Shown here: positions 47,925-52,976 of the stretch, piece by piece
Layout: the number at the start of each line of letters is the position of its first letter
Position numbering within the stretch: the stretch's first letter is position 1
DNA from: Bradyrhizobium cosmicum
GTDB lineage: Bacteria; Pseudomonadota; Alphaproteobacteria; Rhizobiales; Xanthobacteraceae
Reading direction: 5' to 3'
Assembly: GCF_007290395.2 (NCBI RefSeq)
Contig: NZ_CP041656.2
Location: 6,324,001-6,388,000, forward strand
Length of the DNA: 64,000 bases
Notes under the pieces: generated by a model
Seen by the model: the letters and a program-made list of their open reading frames with translations, nothing else
What the model was told of the DNA's origin: nothing
Databases searched by the model: none
Position numbers and translations under genes: made by a program

Positions 47925-49208
47925 TCAGAGCTTCGCCTTCTCCGCCTCCACCGCCTGCCAGCCGATGTCGCGGCGGCAAAAGCCCTCCGGCCAGCGGATG
48001 CGGTCGACGGCCTGGTAGGCGCGGCGCTGCGCCTCCGTCACGGTCGCGCCCAGCGCGCAGACGTTGAGCACGCGGCCGCCATTGGCGAGGATCGCGCCGT
48101 CTTTCGCAACGGTGCCGGCATGGAAGATCTCGGCGCCTTCGACCTTGGCGGCGTCATCGAGCCCCTCGATGCGCGTGCCCTTCTGGTAGTCGCCGGGATA
48201 GCCCTTCGCCGCCATCACCACGGTGAGCGCGGCGTCCGGATGCCAGCGCAGATCGAAATTCTTCAGCTGCCCGTCGCAGGCGGCGAGGAACGCCGGCACG
48301 ATGTCCGACATCATGCGCAGCATCAGCACCTGGCACTCGGGATCGCCGAAGCGGACGTTGAACTCGAACAGTTTTGGGCCCTGCGTCGTCAGCATGATGC
48401 CGGCGTAGAGAATGCCGCGGAACGGCGTGCCGCGCTGCTTCATGCCGGCGACGGTCGGCAGGATGATCTTCGCCATGATGGCGTCGTGGACCGCAGGCGT
48501 GACCAGCGGCGTCGGCGAATAGGCGCCCATGCCGCCGGTGTTCGGGCCGAGATCGTGGTCGAACACGCGCTTGTGGTCCTGCGCGGAGGCCAGCGGGATC
48601 GCGGTCTCGCCGTCGCACAGCGCAAAGAAGCTGATCTCGCGGCCCGCCAGGAATTCCTCGATCACCACTTCCGCGCCGGCCTCGCCGAACGCGCCCTCGA
48701 ACATCATGGCGATGGCGTCCTCGGCCTCGCGCACGGTCTTGGCGACGACGACGCCCTTGCCGGCGGCAAGACCATCGGCCTTCACCACGATCGGCGCGCC
48801 CTGGCTCTGCACATAGGCGCGCGCATCATCGGCATTGGTGAAGCGCTTGTAGGCGCCGGTGGGAATGCCGAACTCGGTGCAGAGCGCCTTGGTGAACCCC
48901 TTGGAGCTTTCGAGCTGGGCGGGGATCTTGTTCGGCCCGAACGCCTTGATGCCGGCGGCGGTGAGATCGTCGACGATGCCGGCCGCCAGCGGCGTCTCCG
49001 GCCCGACCACCACGAGCTCGACCGCATTGGTCTTGCAGAACGCGATCACGGCGGCATGGTCGGCCACATCGAGCGCCACGCACTCCGCCTCGCGCGCGAT
49101 GCCGGCATTGCCGGGCGCGCACCAGAATTTGGTCACCAGGGGAGAGGCTGCGATTTTCCACGCCAAGGCATGTTCACGGCCGCCGGAACCGAGGAGGAGA
49201 ATGTGCAT
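47925..49208 (-). CDS. purD: Phosphoribosylamine--glycine ligase
   Basis: 427 aa from the ATG at 49208 ([18 protein letters not shown]); the frame to 49298 adds 30 unrelated residues. An ATP-grasp ligase making GAR in purine synthesis. [45 protein letters not shown] (ATP-grasp) and [16 protein letters not shown] are family blocks. Length is typical. The 192 bases between its end and the dehalogenase-like gene start hold no gene, though TCGAAAACAACCCCATGCAC there may be a dispersed motif. Confidence 0.95.
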
Positions 49209-49416
49209 CAGAGGCTCAGAAATGAGGGGTTTGGCTGGAGCGGAGGTCGCACGAATCTGGGTGAGGCTCAAGGGGCTGGACGCCGAACTCACCGCCACTC
49301 CGGGGCGCGCCGCTTGCGCGCGACCCGCCGTGCCATGCGCAGACCGGGTTGGCGACGCTCGGCTTTCGGCGAAATAATGAACGTTGCCGAAGCTGCTGCC
49401 TGTCCCCAGCCGGTTG

Positions 49417-49737
49417 CTATGCCGAAAGGTGGTTACCCCTTACAGTCCGCTGAGTTGCTCGCAAGACGTCCATGCCTTCTCGAACCCAGAGACAGCTCCT
49501 AGCGCCTGTCTCGGGAGCAGCGCGGTCGGCGTGTCGTCCGGGATCGATATAGGCTGACGGGATCACCCTCAATGCCTCATCATTTAACGTGCCCACCAAC
49601 TCAACAGCGGCGCGCTTGGCATACCCTTCGATAGCATGGAGGTGCCGTTGGCGGCTGCTGTTCCGCCCCAACTCAAGCACGCGCATGCCCTGATAGATCT
49701 TATTAACTATCGGAGGTCCCATCTCCTTGAATAACAT
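49417..49737 (-). CDS. Doubtful small open reading frame at the island edge
   Basis: 106 aa from the ATG at 49737. Composition is mixed: [50 protein letters not shown] and a basic tail. No domain, signal peptide or convincing ribosome site is seen. It may be a gene remnant at the left boundary of the low-G+C block, or chance. The rest of the ~700-base stretch from 49209 to 49918 holds no recognisable feature; no tRNA or att-like direct repeat was found there by eye. Confidence 0.25.
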
Positions 49738-49918
49738 CACATTTTTGGAAATAGGCTCAGTCGCGCCGACGCAATGACAAGAGTCTTCGAGAGCCGATGG
49801 TGTGCAAATCGAAAGGTCGAACTAATGGATCGGACTTGGTCCGCTGTCTTCGAACGAAAGAGGGCGCTCGCGCATAGGCCACCATCGAGCCGTCAGCAGG
49901 TAGTGGCGTGATGCCGCG

Positions 49919-50551
49919 ATGCGGCGAAAATTTGTGTACTATCTGATTGGCTCCGTGGGAGTAGGCAAATCGACAGCAATCTCCAACTTTCGAAATCTTA
50001 CAACGTACGACGAATGGATCGACGAGCGTCGTTCCGACATGGCTGTCCCAGAGAAGCGTTTGCCTGCTTCACAAAGGAAGAAGCATGTCACGGAGATCAA
50101 TGTTTGGACAGCTGAGCAGTTTAGAAAGAAGAATCTTGCTCTAGAGAAGAATAGAAGCGGGATACATCTGGTCGATCGATGCCCGCTTGACCCTTTGACG
50201 TTCGGAGCAAAGTCGGAGCGGCGAGCAAAAGCGAAGAGTCTTTTGAACACAATTACGGACTCACGCTCACACGCAATTGAGAAGGGCCATCTGATATTTC
50301 TCGATGGCGATGTCGGTGACATTCAGCAGCGAAACACCTATAAGCATAAATATTGGACTGAGGCCGAAATCGAAGAACTCATGGGCAACATCGACTCGGT
50401 CTACCAAGACGTTCCAAAAACGACAATCTGCACAAGAGGCCGAAGCGCGGCTCAAGTTGCGCGCGAGATGGCGAAAGTGATCTTTCTTGATAACTACTGC
50501 GACATCAGTTTGGAAGATCGCCTCGAGCAGTTTGCCGGGGCAGCAAAGTGA
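49919..50551 (+). CDS. P-loop NTPase, nucleoside/nucleotide kinase-like
   Basis: 210 aa. Walker A GSVGVGKST is at residues 11-19 right after a hydrophobic strand (FVYYLIG). D86-R87 in HLVDRCPLDPLTFG resembles the DR(S/Y) motif of deoxynucleoside and thymidylate kinases, and RCPLDPLTF follows the ...R.P.DPLAF pattern of that group. LIFLDGDVGDIQQRN could be the LID-side strand. The C-terminal third is helical. It is encoded in A+T-richer DNA than its neighbours, a sign of transfer. Its stop overlaps the next start (TGATG), so the two proteins are made together. Substrate unknown; an AAA_33-type polynucleotide kinase is an alternative. Confidence 0.65.
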   Translation: MRRKFVYYLIGSVGVGKSTAISNFRNLTTYDEWIDERRSDMAVPEKRLPASQRKKHVTEINVWTAEQFRKKNLALEKNRSGIHLVDRCPLDPLTFGAKSERRAKAKSLLNTITDSRSHAIEKGHLIFLDGDVGDIQQRNTYKHKYWTEAEIEELMGNIDSVYQDVPKTTICTRGRSAAQVAREMAKVIFLDNYCDISLEDRLEQFAGAAK

Positions 50552-51060
50552 TGGTTGAGAAGCGAATGCGCGCCTATTTCGCGGCGCCTCTCTTCAATGC
50601 AATGGAGAGACGGCACAACTTAGAAATAGTCGAGCATATTGAGGCTTGGCTGAAAGTCTTTTTGCCACAGCGCGATGGCGGCTTATTGACGAAACTCGTT
50701 AACGAGGGGATGCCGGTCGATGCAGCTGAACGTCTCGTTTTTGAAACAGATCTGCGCGCAATCGCCGCGGCTGATGTTGTGGTTACAGTCTTGGACGGAG
50801 CGCACATCGATGAGGGCGTCGCCTTCGAGGTGGGATTTGCATACGCGCTGGGCAAGCCGTGTGTAGGACTTCAGACTGATGCGCGTCGTCAACTTCCTAC
50901 CGGTAACAATCCGATGTTGAGCAAGTCTTTGACTGCCGTCTTTCAGGCGGAGCATGATCTATATAATTGGCTACAAGACTTCGCGGCTGGCCGTACGACG
51001 CGAACTGATCGATTCGAATTGATGTCGCATCAGTTGTACGGACAACCGACGGCGGACTAG
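50551..51060 (+). CDS. Nucleoside 2-deoxyribosyltransferase family protein
   Basis: 169 aa from the ATG at 50551 (a GTG at 50548 is possible). Family pattern (PF05014): MRAYFAAPLFNAMERRHN at the start, FETDLRAIAAADVVVTVLDG with D67 and D82, and HIDEGVAFEVGFAYALGKP with D88 and probable nucleophile E93. GNNPML near 130 is also typical. Such enzymes exchange or hydrolyse the base of a 2'-deoxynucleoside; relatives include dNMP N-glycosidases. Coupled to the kinase-like gene by the one-base overlap. The pair could remodel the deoxynucleotide pool. Codon use is A+T-richer than in core genes. Confidence 0.8.
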   Translation: MVEKRMRAYFAAPLFNAMERRHNLEIVEHIEAWLKVFLPQRDGGLLTKLVNEGMPVDAAERLVFETDLRAIAAADVVVTVLDGAHIDEGVAFEVGFAYALGKPCVGLQTDARRQLPTGNNPMLSKSLTAVFQAEHDLYNWLQDFAAGRTTRTDRFELMSHQLYGQPTAD

Positions 51061-51145
51061 TTGCGCCGCCTTAATAAGGGCACCTCCTAAGAGCCGCTGT
51101 GGACTGTCACCGTAATTGCGGGCTCGGCAAAGACGTGGAGGGGCG

Positions 51146-51874
51146 CTAGGCCGCGAAATGTGCGAGCTCCGAGATCAGTTTCGCATAGTCGAGCCGATAG
51201 GCGTCTATGTCCTTCTGACGCGTGACGTAGACAGGGTGGTGGGCGCCCGTGTCGCCTAGCTTCTTAATGGCTGTCATCGAAGCATCGGTCCCGCGGGTCA
51301 GTTTGAGGTATTGTCCAGACGCGGCAAGGCGGATGATGTCTCCAAGGCCCTTGTACTCGCCCGAACCATCCCGAATTACAGAACCATGCCCCCTTTTTTC
51401 AAATGCAAGTATCAATAGACACTCCATGAGGCGCCGACAGAGCACTGCGCAACCATCGTGAAAGCCATAATGGTAACAGCCGTTGATCTGAGCGACTATT
51501 CGCGCGAGGTAGGTTGGACCCGCCGAGAAGAGGTCTGATGCGAGGATGTGATCATCAGTCAGAGTCGGTGTGGCGCTCCCGCAAAACGGCAAGTATTTAC
51601 CGTCTAAGCGAGACTTGCTCACCAGTCTGAGTTTCACTGTGCCACGCACCTTTCCGCGAATGACATCCGCGTTTTCGAGCAATTGGCGAGTGAAGCGGGA
51701 CAGATTAATTTTTCCCTTTAAAGCCAAATCGTGCATCAGGTCTGCCAGTCGAGCAGGCGTTACGTCAGTTACACCTTCTCGTTCAATAAACCACAAGAGA
51801 GCGACTGCGCAGCCAACTTCGCTGAGGCCCAGTCTCGAAATCTTCTGCGCGAACTGCTGCAAATTAGCCTGCAT
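51146..51874 (-). CDS. Protein with winged-helix-like N-terminus and HEPN/DUF4145-like C-terminus
   Basis: 242 aa. Residues 1-90 are helical and then beta (ARLADLMHDLALKGKINLSRFTRQLLENADVIRG), resembling a winged helix. Residues 115-240 are all-helical, with CRRLMECLLILAFEKRG (146-162) and KKLGDTGAHHPVYV (204-217), the R-x2-E ... G(N/D)xxAHH pattern of DUF4145/HEPN-like domains, which in conflict systems are often RNases. No strict RxxxxH motif is seen, so RNase activity is unproven. Its ATG lies 11 bases inside the end of the upstream frameshifted gene, so they form one operon, convergent to the kinase-deoxyribosyltransferase pair (85 bases between stops). Confidence 0.6.
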   Translation of the reverse strand: MQANLQQFAQKISRLGLSEVGCAVALLWFIEREGVTDVTPARLADLMHDLALKGKINLSRFTRQLLENADVIRGKVRGTVKLRLVSKSRLDGKYLPFCGSATPTLTDDHILASDLFSAGPTYLARIVAQINGCYHYGFHDGCAVLCRRLMECLLILAFEKRGHGSVIRDGSGEYKGLGDIIRLAASGQYLKLTRGTDASMTAIKKLGDTGAHHPVYVTRQKDIDAYRLDYAKLISELAHFAA

Positions 51875-52429
51875 CGCTAGCGTTCAGCCATTTTTCGAAT
51901 TCAGCGTGGGCCTTCGCCGTCAGTCGGTAGGCTGGAGGCGGGCCTCCCCGCTTGCGCCTTCCCGTGGTGGTGAATTGCTGCAAGTGTTTTTTCATAATGC
52001 GCGAGACCGCAGCTGGATCAATTCGCACTCCAAGCGCATCGAGTACACGGTGGACTGCCCCGGACGTAAGGGCGTCCCCAACGAACCAAAGTACGAATGC
52101 AGCTTTATTGTAGCTGTCGCGCGGTGTGTGAAGGATTTTTCGCTCAATCAGATGGAATTGGTCGCTTTCCTTTACTTCGTTGGCGACTTCATTTGGGTCT
52201 ATACCCTCTGGTCTCTTAATTTCGTCAGAGGATTGATCGGAACTGCGACGTCGAGCGGCCTTGCGTCCACCGGCTCCTTCAGATGCGCGCGCAGGCTGCT
52301 GGTGAGCGGAGTACGGTGTTCCTTGCTTCTCCCACCACCGCTCCAAGAGTTGGTCAACATTGGCTCGTGGCCTTCAAGCTCAATTTCTGCGTCGCCGGAC
52401 CTAAGGCGGATTTTGACCGTGTCGACCAT
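51864..52429 (-). pseudogene. Frameshifted DNA-binding-like gene
   Basis: An ATG at 52429 (MVDTVKIRLRSGDAEIELEG) opens a good frame that breaks after HEPMLTN near 52350. The following bases read in the next frame as LERWWEKQGTPYSAHQQ and continue to a stop at 51864. The span is 566 bases, one short of 189 codons, so a single missing base near 52347-52353 restores a 188-residue protein (ALTSGAVHRVLDALGVRIDPAAVSRIMKKHL is a winged-helix-like stretch). It is either a real inactivating mutation or a sequencing error. A TTG at 52346 could start the distal part alone. The last 11 bases overlap the HEPN-like gene. Confidence 0.65.
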
Positions 52430-52676
52430 GGCAATCCCCATCCCGTTCGTACTGGAAGTTGAGGGATCGAGCCGGGACAGTCCAGAGGAATCACGGCCCC
52501 TTGCGGGCAATCCACCGACGTGAAAAAAATGTCCCCCAGCGCAAAAAATTGGGTGTCACTGCGACTATAAAAATCGGCTACAAAAGACGAAGGATTGCTG
52601 GCAAATAAGTCAATTTCTTCAATGCTTTTGGGTATTTTGCGGTCCCCGCCCAACTTTGCCGGACTTGCCAAAGGGC

Positions 52677-52976
52677 CTACCCTTGCTTCCCCGCAATAAT
52701 CTCCTGCAACGTCGCCACATGCCGCGCGAACGCGCCGCGACCCGCAGCCGTTGCGGTGACCGTCGTCTGCGGCTTCTTCCCCACGAACGCCTTCTCCACC
52801 GAGACATAGCCCGCCTTCGCCAGCGTCTCGATATGCGCACCGAGATTGCCGTCGGTGGCGCCGGTGAGCTTCTTCAGCCGCGCGAATTCCAGTCCTGCCG
52901 TCGCAGGCAGCGCGTTCAGCGCCGCCATGATCTTCAGCCGCAACGGCTGGTGGATGATGTCGTCGAGTTCGGCCAT
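52677..52976 (-). CDS. Small winged-helix transcriptional regulator
   Basis: 99 aa. Single winged HTH: IIHQPLRLKIMAALNALP, FARLKKLTGATDGNLGAHIETLAKAGYVSVEKAFVGKKPQTTVTATAAGRGAFARHV. The wing VGKKPQTTV and overall pattern match the 'transcriptional regulator' wHTH family that usually pairs with a membrane protein. Its ATG overlaps the stop of the upstream membrane protein gene by one base, so they are cotranscribed. It marks the return to core-like, G+C-rich DNA after the island; the 250 bases before the island genes (52430-52676) are promoter-like and A+T-rich. Confidence 0.8.
   Translation of the reverse strand: MAELDDIIHQPLRLKIMAALNALPATAGLEFARLKKLTGATDGNLGAHIETLAKAGYVSVEKAFVGKKPQTTVTATAAGRGAFARHVATLQEIIAGKQG

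What the first reader, a model, noticed from the sequence alone, without database searches (positions are those of the whole stretch)
49919..51060. Coupled P-loop kinase and nucleoside deoxyribosyltransferase pair in an A+T-richer island
A kinase-like P-loop protein (GSVGVGKST, DR motif at 86-87) and a nucleoside 2-deoxyribosyltransferase-family protein (E93 in GVAFEVG) share a TGATG junction, so they are made in fixed ratio. Base composition is visibly lower in G+C than in flanking core genes. Deoxyribosyltransferase-fold enzymes are known in nucleotide-centred conflict systems and in phage base exchange. The pair might damage or remodel dNTP pools on infection, or salvage unusual nucleosides. 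Function is inference.
Basis: partly seen in the sequence, partly recalled or inferred. Interest (0 to 1): 0.75.

Follow-up and report, generated by a model that had tools for sequence, protein, structure and literature searches.

The report
Truncated SIR2-kinase/deoxyribosyltransferase system remnant
Two overlapping genes on a foreign DNA island in a soil bacterium are the intact tail end of a rare, apparently undescribed mobile system, probably anti-virus, that in relatives joins a SIR2 domain, a deoxynucleotide-kinase-like domain, a base-swapping enzyme and often modified-guanine enzymes.

Summary
In detail: kinase ORF 49919-50551 and nucleoside-deoxyribosyltransferase (NDT) ORF 50551-51060 overlap at TGATG, on a ~3.4 kb low-G+C island between purD and an HTH_34 gene. 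In relatives read, the kinase is the C-terminal domain of a SIR2-kinase fusion, with NDT directly downstream in 16 of 16 other loci that keep the kinase (14 of 14 not found through NDT). A DUF6884 protein lies directly upstream in 11 of 15; a QueC is in the operon in 7. Copies lie on plasmids, beside SIR2-HerA, on phage contigs, and in one relative at the same purD spot; three other copies are broken. The window copy lacks SIR2, DUF6884 and QueC, yet keeps 38/38 and 42/42 near-invariant kinase and NDT positions. Best reading: a 5'-truncated copy of a mobile, probably anti-phage, deoxynucleotide-centred SIR2 system. That kinase plus NDT make or sense an unusual, perhaps 7-deazaguanine, deoxynucleotide gating SIR2 is inference; the usual SIR2 catalytic His position holds Asn in 14 of 14 aligned fusions, so NADase activity is unproven. 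My literature searches showed no description of this combination.

The parts
49314..52672 (.). Variable island between purD and the HTH_34 gene (ends approximate), G+C about 0.54 against 0.66 for the rest of the window
   Evidence: Flanks conserved in relatives while the middle matches none of the 40 relatives searched apart from one short 73% hit; spot nearly empty in 7 of 14 relatives with both flanks on one contig; G+C
49919..50551 (+). dNK/TMPK-like P-loop kinase ORF (stop included), equivalent to the C-terminal domain of SIR2-kinase fusions; in-frame TAG at 49901-49903 upstream
49949..49975 (+). P-loop GSVGVGKST (residues 11-19)
50174..50179 (+). Asp86-Arg87 of DRCPLDPLTF, invariant in the aligned relatives
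50549..50553 (+). TGATG stop/start overlap
   Evidence: with the first possible NDT start, reading frames also overlap in 13 of the 14 other loci whose SIR2-kinase is unbroken (L030 is the exception)
50551..51060 (+). Nucleoside 2'-deoxyribosyltransferase-family protein; conserved Y9, D67, D87, E93, N120, M122
49904..49918 (+). Point where relatives continue upstream into the SIR2 domain; here no SIR2-coding sequence of this family was found upstream

Best explanation
SHOWN: the pair is the 3' part of a recurrent, patchily distributed gene cluster whose core is a SIR2-kinase fusion followed, usually with overlapping reading frames, by an NDT; 11 of 15 loci also have a DUF6884/PF26468 protein directly upstream and 7 a QueC. 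The window copy keeps the kinase domain and NDT without visible decay but lacks the SIR2 domain and the upstream genes. INFERRED: the full system is anti-phage. NDT transfers a base, possibly a 7-deazaguanine from QueC, to or from deoxyribose; the dNK-like domain binds or phosphorylates the resulting deoxynucleoside or deoxynucleotide; this state gates the attached SIR2 domain, which consumes or senses NAD+. The window copy therefore cannot run the SIR2 step and is most likely a 5'-truncated remnant; at most its NDT and kinase activities survive.
For: NDT lies immediately downstream in all 16 other loci that keep the kinase domain (L002-L008, L024-L030, L093, L094); 14 of these were found through the kinase or SIR2-kinase, 2 (L093, L094) through NDT. 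SIR2_2 passes its Pfam cut-off in 6 of 6 fusions scanned (L002, L003, L007, L029, L093, L094). The SIR2-kinase profile's best PDB matches include ThsA (8.9e-11) and KomC (7e-7). DUF6884 protein directly upstream in 11 of 15 loci whose upstream side is held, QueC in the operon in 7; QueC of L007 and L027 pass the TIGR00364 equivalog cut-off. Mobile or defence contexts: SIR2-HerA beside L024, a phage tail gene beside L094 and a phage replication gene about 3 kb from L093's NDT, plasmids, the same purD spot in L025. Kinase and NDT pairwise identities correlate over 15 loci, the window included (r 0.65, 0 of 5000 label permutations). Nearest solved NDT, 49% identical, is that of Desulfotalea psychrophila. 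SIR2-kinase and DUF6884-protein queries of this family find no further copy in the genome at E <= 0.001.
Against: No experiment. In all 14 aligned fusions the residue before the SIR2 Gly (YHxNG), where ThsA has the His of its HG motif, is Asn; an invariant His lies two residues earlier, so NADase activity is uncertain (L094, not in that alignment, reads HPHG). QueC was not seen in 8 of 15 loci, in the stretches read, so a 7-deazaguanine substrate is not general. The window genes show no decay (38/38 and 42/42 near-invariant positions), which is also what a working SIR2-less form would show. PADLOC has no dedicated model for the fusion, whose SIR2 part matches ThsA and LmuA models only weakly (best 1.4e-7), nor any match for the NDT. 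Not every insert at the purD spot looks like defence (L108).
Confidence: 0.6

Rival explanations
1. The window pair is a working SIR2-less variant: kinase and NDT still act on deoxynucleosides and serve as a modifier, a signal maker or a brake for other systems.
For: No loss at conserved positions in either gene; several database kinases also begin at or near the domain boundary (P0003, P0010, P0015, P0017).
Against: All 16 other loci that keep the kinase carry SIR2, intact or in pieces; broken copies occur elsewhere (L026 with a stop, L028 with an insertion, L031 without kinase and NDT); the short database forms may be contig or assembly ends, which could not be checked; promoter-like sites are not above chance (3 found in 49200-52700, 1.8 expected).
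Confidence: 0.18
2. The full cluster makes a modified deoxynucleotide for DNA: QueC makes preQ0, NDT puts it on deoxyribose, the kinase starts its conversion to a triphosphate, DUF6884 (DpdC family) hydrates it; a DNA-modification rather than an abortive system.
For: QueC passes the equivalog cut-off; DUF6884 is the DpdC family (passage; cross-match of a DpdC to PDC-M57A); an NDT 47% identical to the window's sits in a QueD-QueE-x-QueC-NDT operon on a Streptosporangium plasmid; QueC-like cluster 4 is coupled to PfkB-NDT proteins (PMC13329287 section 8).
Against: No transglycosylase or polymerase noticed by eye in the loci; SIR2 is the most constant partner besides NDT; QueC not seen in 8 of 15 loci; 9 other genomes with copies or fragments had no DpdA-like protein at E <= 0.001.
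Confidence: 0.12
3. Plain nucleoside salvage or exchange pair in an acquired island (the ordinary version of the first reader's idea).
For: The nearest solved relative is an exchange enzyme and the kinase fold fits deoxynucleosides; NDT relatives also occur away from SIR2-kinase genes.
Against: Kinase family not found outside SIR2 fusions in any other locus read; patchy presence (matches, own genome and fragments included, in 7 of 242 genus, 5 of 248 family, 1 of 385 class and 3 of 398 phylum genomes).
Confidence: 0.07

Closest known systems
Thoeris (ThsA SIR2-SLOG effector with ThsB TIR signal maker)
   Same: Two-gene logic: a SIR2 protein with a C-terminal nucleotide-binding domain next to a TIR/NDT-like glycosidase-fold enzyme; ThsA is the best PDB match of the SIR2 part; ThsB2 active site resembles NDTs (PMC11204291 passage)
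   Different: dNK-like kinase in place of SLOG, NDT in place of TIR, Asn in place of the SIR2 HG-motif His in the aligned fusions, extra QueC and DUF6884 genes
Kongming (KomABC)
   Same: SIR2 subunit gated by an unusual purine deoxynucleotide made with a deoxynucleotide kinase (PMC12774641 passage); KomC among the best PDB matches
   Different: Kongming uses a phage kinase, KomA and a separate KomB (a deaminase and a HAM1 protein, recalled); here the kinase-like domain is fused to SIR2 and the partner is an NDT
PADLOC candidate system PDC-M57 (A = DUF6884, B = PF26468-like)
   Same: The upstream protein of L007 is a fusion of PDC-M57B- and PDC-M57A-like parts (1.3e-64 and 2.1e-31)
   Different: PADLOC has no dedicated model for the SIR2-kinase and none matched the NDT of these loci; the window lacks the DUF6884 protein
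Dpd 7-deazaguanine DNA-modification island
   Same: QueC and DpdC-family DUF6884; the host genome carries a separate true dpd island
   Different: No DpdA or DpdB noticed in the SIR2-kinase loci (by eye; no DpdA at E <= 0.001 in 9 of their genomes)
Type IV CBASS Cap9 and QatC (QueC-family protein deazaguanylation)
   Same: QueC-family enzyme in a conflict operon; L002 has a KAP/QatA-like ATPase upstream
   Different: QueC here keeps canonical motifs and passes the metabolic equivalog cut-off; no conserved N-terminal Gly seen by eye in partner proteins
Retron-Eco1 NDT-like effector
   Same: NDT-fold enzyme in an anti-phage operon (title of Carabias 2024 seen in a reference list; NDT nature of the effector recalled)
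   Different: No reverse transcriptase noticed in the loci; window NDT scores higher on PF05014 than on PF15891

Membership tests
Nucleoside 2'-deoxyribosyltransferase (PF05014) | Family profile above curated cut-off | tested here: met
   79.3 bits against 28.8
Nucleoside 2'-deoxyribosyltransferase (PF05014) | Catalytic Glu with Tyr, Asp, Asp and Asn-x-Met from the neighbouring subunit (roles other than Glu recalled) | tested here: met
   Y9, D67, D87, E93, N120, M122 invariant in 43 sequences
Nucleoside 2'-deoxyribosyltransferase (PF05014) | Transferase activity | not testable with these tools
   Nearest solved relative 7o62 (49% identical) is called an NDT in PMC9570332 (passage)
Deoxynucleoside/thymidylate kinase fold | Fold and P-loop | tested here: met
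Deoxynucleoside/thymidylate kinase fold | Curated Pfam cut-off of a kinase family | tested here: not met
   Best is AAA_28, 23.2 bits against 27, for the window; L029 passes AAA_28 at 29.3
SIR2-kinase/NDT system (described here) | SIR2 domain fused N-terminally to the kinase | tested here: not met
   Absent from window and not found elsewhere in the genome with this family's query
SIR2-kinase/NDT system (described here) | Kinase domain followed directly by NDT | tested here: met
   relatives
PDC-M57 (PADLOC candidate) | DUF6884 (A) and B proteins | tested here: not met
   Not in window nor in the genome with the L007 query; present in L007
SIR2 NADase | Catalytic Asn and His of the domain in full-length relatives | tested here: inconclusive
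   NFDD kept in 13 of 13 sequences reaching it; HG motif reads YHxNG in 14 of 14 aligned fusions, HPHG in L094
Thoeris | ThsA with SLOG plus ThsB TIR | tested here: not met
   Kinase and NDT occupy these places; no SLOG in the Pfam scan of the fusions
Kongming | KomA deaminase, KomB HAM1 and KomC SIR2 as separate genes (recalled) | not tested
   Neighbour ORFs were read but not scanned for KomA or KomB

The most novel reading that the evidence does not exclude
The full operon is a self-contained modified-guanine deoxynucleotide alarm: QueC supplies a 7-deazaguanine base, NDT mounts it on deoxyribose, the SIR2-fused dNK-like domain phosphorylates or reads the product, and this switches SIR2, with the DUF6884 protein sensing or processing modified DNA. 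In this host, which has its own dpd 7-deazaguanine DNA island, the SIR2 part was lost because the alarm would be self-reactive. Nine other genomes with copies (intact, broken or fragmentary) showed no DpdA-like protein; the one genome with both has the SIR2-less copy. DpdA is rare anyway (4 of 53 genomes, one of them weak), so this is no test.
Probability: 0.12. Interest if true: 0.85.

Novelty: new variant of a known kind. Interest (0 to 1): 0.6.

Why it matters
It links three themes so far met separately: SIR2 effectors gated by nucleotides, QueC/DpdC 7-deazaguanine chemistry in conflict, and NDT-fold enzymes in immunity. If true it would be a SIR2 system that builds its own unusual deoxynucleotide signal, and intact natural operons are named here for direct testing. 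The window copy is a ready natural test of what kinase plus NDT do without SIR2.

Tried and rejected
Rejected: a free-standing kinase family (all 16 other kinase loci carry SIR2, whole or in pieces). Viral collections: the kinase query found nothing in 50,697 phage records, and pattern scans of IMG/VR with the kinase and DUF6884-protein profiles found no relative; yet two contigs brought in by the NDT scan (L093, L094) do hold the SIR2-kinase, and L094 the DUF6884 protein too, so those two scans missed true members and prove no absence. The DUF6884 domain alone matches 16 phage records. The other four NDT loci were not counted: three were read in part (L095, L097) or not at all (L096, L098), and no SIR2-kinase was noticed in the two read. 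Dropped as not members: G163 (a 79-residue match to the SIR2 part only) and G955 (match 2.3e-4; the ORF nearest it reads like a shikimate kinase by eye).

Contig-length pairing of database proteins (lists capped at 120, or 40 of 43 kinases with a length): 8 kinase/NDT, 15 DUF6884-protein/NDT and 3 DUF6884-protein/kinase equal lengths, against offset-control means of 0.43, 0.95 and 0.27 and maxima of 4, 4 and 3; the last is not above its control's maximum, and equal length is not proof of one contig. None of the 15 DUF6884-protein/NDT lengths is in the kinase list, which hints at loci with another middle gene or with kinases too diverged for that search; not followed.

Literature: nine searches touching the system listed no paper that I could see describing a SIR2-kinase with NDT and QueC. 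I saw listings and abstract starts for these, passages of PMC11888242, PMC11701544, PMC9570332, PMC12774641, PMC10952713, PMC11204291, PMC13174449, PMC6884629 and PMC12548924, the outline of PMC13279940, and two of five parts plus one section of PMC13329287 (it does not mention SIR2 or DUF6884). PMC7159879 holds none of six terms. Burroughs 2015 and a 2024 review are not held, so a prior description there is not excluded.

Full report

WHAT IT BELONGS TO. Kinase homologues in the protein database (43 hits) include longer proteins with SIR2-like N-terminal sequence, one with a precomputed SIR2_2 domain. Loci fetched by kinase or SIR2-kinase searches (plasmids; genome contigs; genus 242 genomes; family 248; class 385; phylum 398) and by NDT in viral contigs gave 16 other loci that keep the kinase domain: L002-L008, L024-L030, L093, L094. 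In all 16 the kinase is the C-terminal part of a SIR2 protein (in L026 and L028 broken; L004 starts at a contig end) and an NDT follows directly. L093 and L094 were found through NDT, so the unbiased count is 14 of 14. DUF6884/PF26468 proteins lie directly upstream in L005-L008, L024-L029 and L094 (11 of 15, L004 being cut), and QueC in the operon in L005-L008 and L028 (upstream) and L026, L027 (downstream); it was not seen in the other 8 within the stretches read. L031 keeps the DUF6884 protein and a SIR2 fragment but no kinase or NDT. Two further matches were dropped (G163, SIR2 part only; G955, apparent shikimate kinase). The class search found only the window's own genome; first-look limits apply. 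The link is one-sided: the NDT family is large (1051 proteins) and occurs without the kinase.

MOBILE CONTEXT. L002 and L003 are plasmids. L024 sits beside SIR2-HerA genes (PADLOC 7e-84 and 1e-168). L094 adjoins a phage tail gene and L093 lies about 3 kb from a phage replication O gene. The purD/HTH_34 spot of the window is nearly empty (gap up to 261 bp) in 7 of 14 relatives with both flanks on one contig, holds 624 bp in one and 2.1-7.8 kb in six (gaps approximate). Of the six inserts, one (L103) has a DGQHR/DpdB-like and a weakly DrmC-like gene, one (L107) a weak AbiJ match, one (L105) a TcmP gene; L108 looks metabolic by eye, and one protein each of L104 and L106 had no PADLOC match. G239 (L025) holds a DUF6884/SIR2-kinase/NDT locus at this same spot, though its kinase is only 28% identical to the window's.

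THE WINDOW COPY. No SIR2, DUF6884-protein or QueC sequence of this system is found in the window; in the genome the SIR2-kinase query hits only the kinase part and the DUF6884-protein query nothing at E <= 0.001 (a profile gave one weak hit, E 2.9e-4, which lies in the dpd island's DpdC). Another SIR2_2 protein exists at 4.76 Mb, and two full-length QueC matches lie elsewhere in the genome. The remaining genes keep 38 of 38 and 42 of 42 near-invariant positions. So the copy is truncated at its 5' side but not decayed: either the loss is recent or the remainder still works. The database record of the same protein begins 15 bases later, at a GTG (P0001).

MECHANISM, inferred. ThsA and KomC are among the closest solved SIR2 proteins. 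Kongming shows SIR2 gated by a deoxynucleotide made with a deoxynucleotide kinase (PMC12774641, passage); Thoeris shows a SIR2 effector paired with a TIR enzyme whose active site resembles NDT (PMC11204291, passage). Here kinase-like domain, SIR2 and NDT are encoded together, and QueC, which in L007 and L027 passes the metabolic equivalog cut-off, could supply the base. Two other QueC-NDT couplings support a base-to-deoxyribose step: a Streptosporangium QueD-QueE-x-QueC-NDT operon and QueC-like cluster 4 with PfkB-NDT proteins, which its authors assign to purine salvage (PMC13329287). Against: QueC was not seen in 8 of 15 loci, and the SIR2 HG-motif His is Asn in all 14 aligned fusions, although L094, not in that alignment, reads HPHG.

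SELF-REACTIVITY IDEA. The host carries a dpd island (DpdC 5e-130, DpdB twice, DpdA 4e-163, QueC; QueE- and QueD-like genes read by eye). Of 53 genomes checked, 4 had a DpdA-like hit (three strong, one weak at 8e-5), among them none of the 9 others with SIR2-kinase copies or fragments. The numbers are too small to test; this is offered as the boldest reading only.

VERDICT. Observation confirmed; interpretation partly right; the object is the truncated end of an apparently undescribed SIR2-kinase/NDT system, a new variant of nucleotide-centred SIR2 systems.

Noticed in passing
own genome, L114 (G000:C1:544500-556500): dpd 7-deazaguanine DNA-modification island: DpdC, two DpdB, DpdA, QueC, QueE- and QueD-like genes, with a terminase-like gene upstream by eye
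   Followed up: partly
window 51146-51874 (-) and 51864-52346 (-): Two further island genes: a protein with sub-threshold DUF4145 similarity and a protein without Pfam match that reads like a winged-helix regulator by eye; function unknown
   Followed up: no
window 49314-52672: purD/HTH_34 intergenic spot is an insertion hotspot in the genus with differing cargo
   Followed up: partly
L030 3706-5439: 577-aa protein without Pfam or PADLOC match just upstream of a SIR2-kinase/NDT locus; maybe an alternative to the DUF6884 protein
   Followed up: no
L026 2757-4820 and L027 1460-3778: GHKL-ATPase gene (HATPase_c_3 in L026; L027 by eye) upstream of the DUF6884 protein; possibly another system part
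   Followed up: no
database proteins P0003, P0010, P0015, P0017: Kinase-only predictions beginning at or near the domain boundary, like the window copy; contig ends could not be checked
   Followed up: no
L028 6049-8167: Insertion, transposase-like by eye, splits the SIR2-kinase gene of a copy whose fragment is named Rhodopseudomonas palustris (P0040)
   Followed up: partly
one search lists: Fifteen DUF6884-protein/NDT pairs on equal-length contigs, none of those lengths in the kinase list, hint at related operons with other middle genes
   Followed up: no
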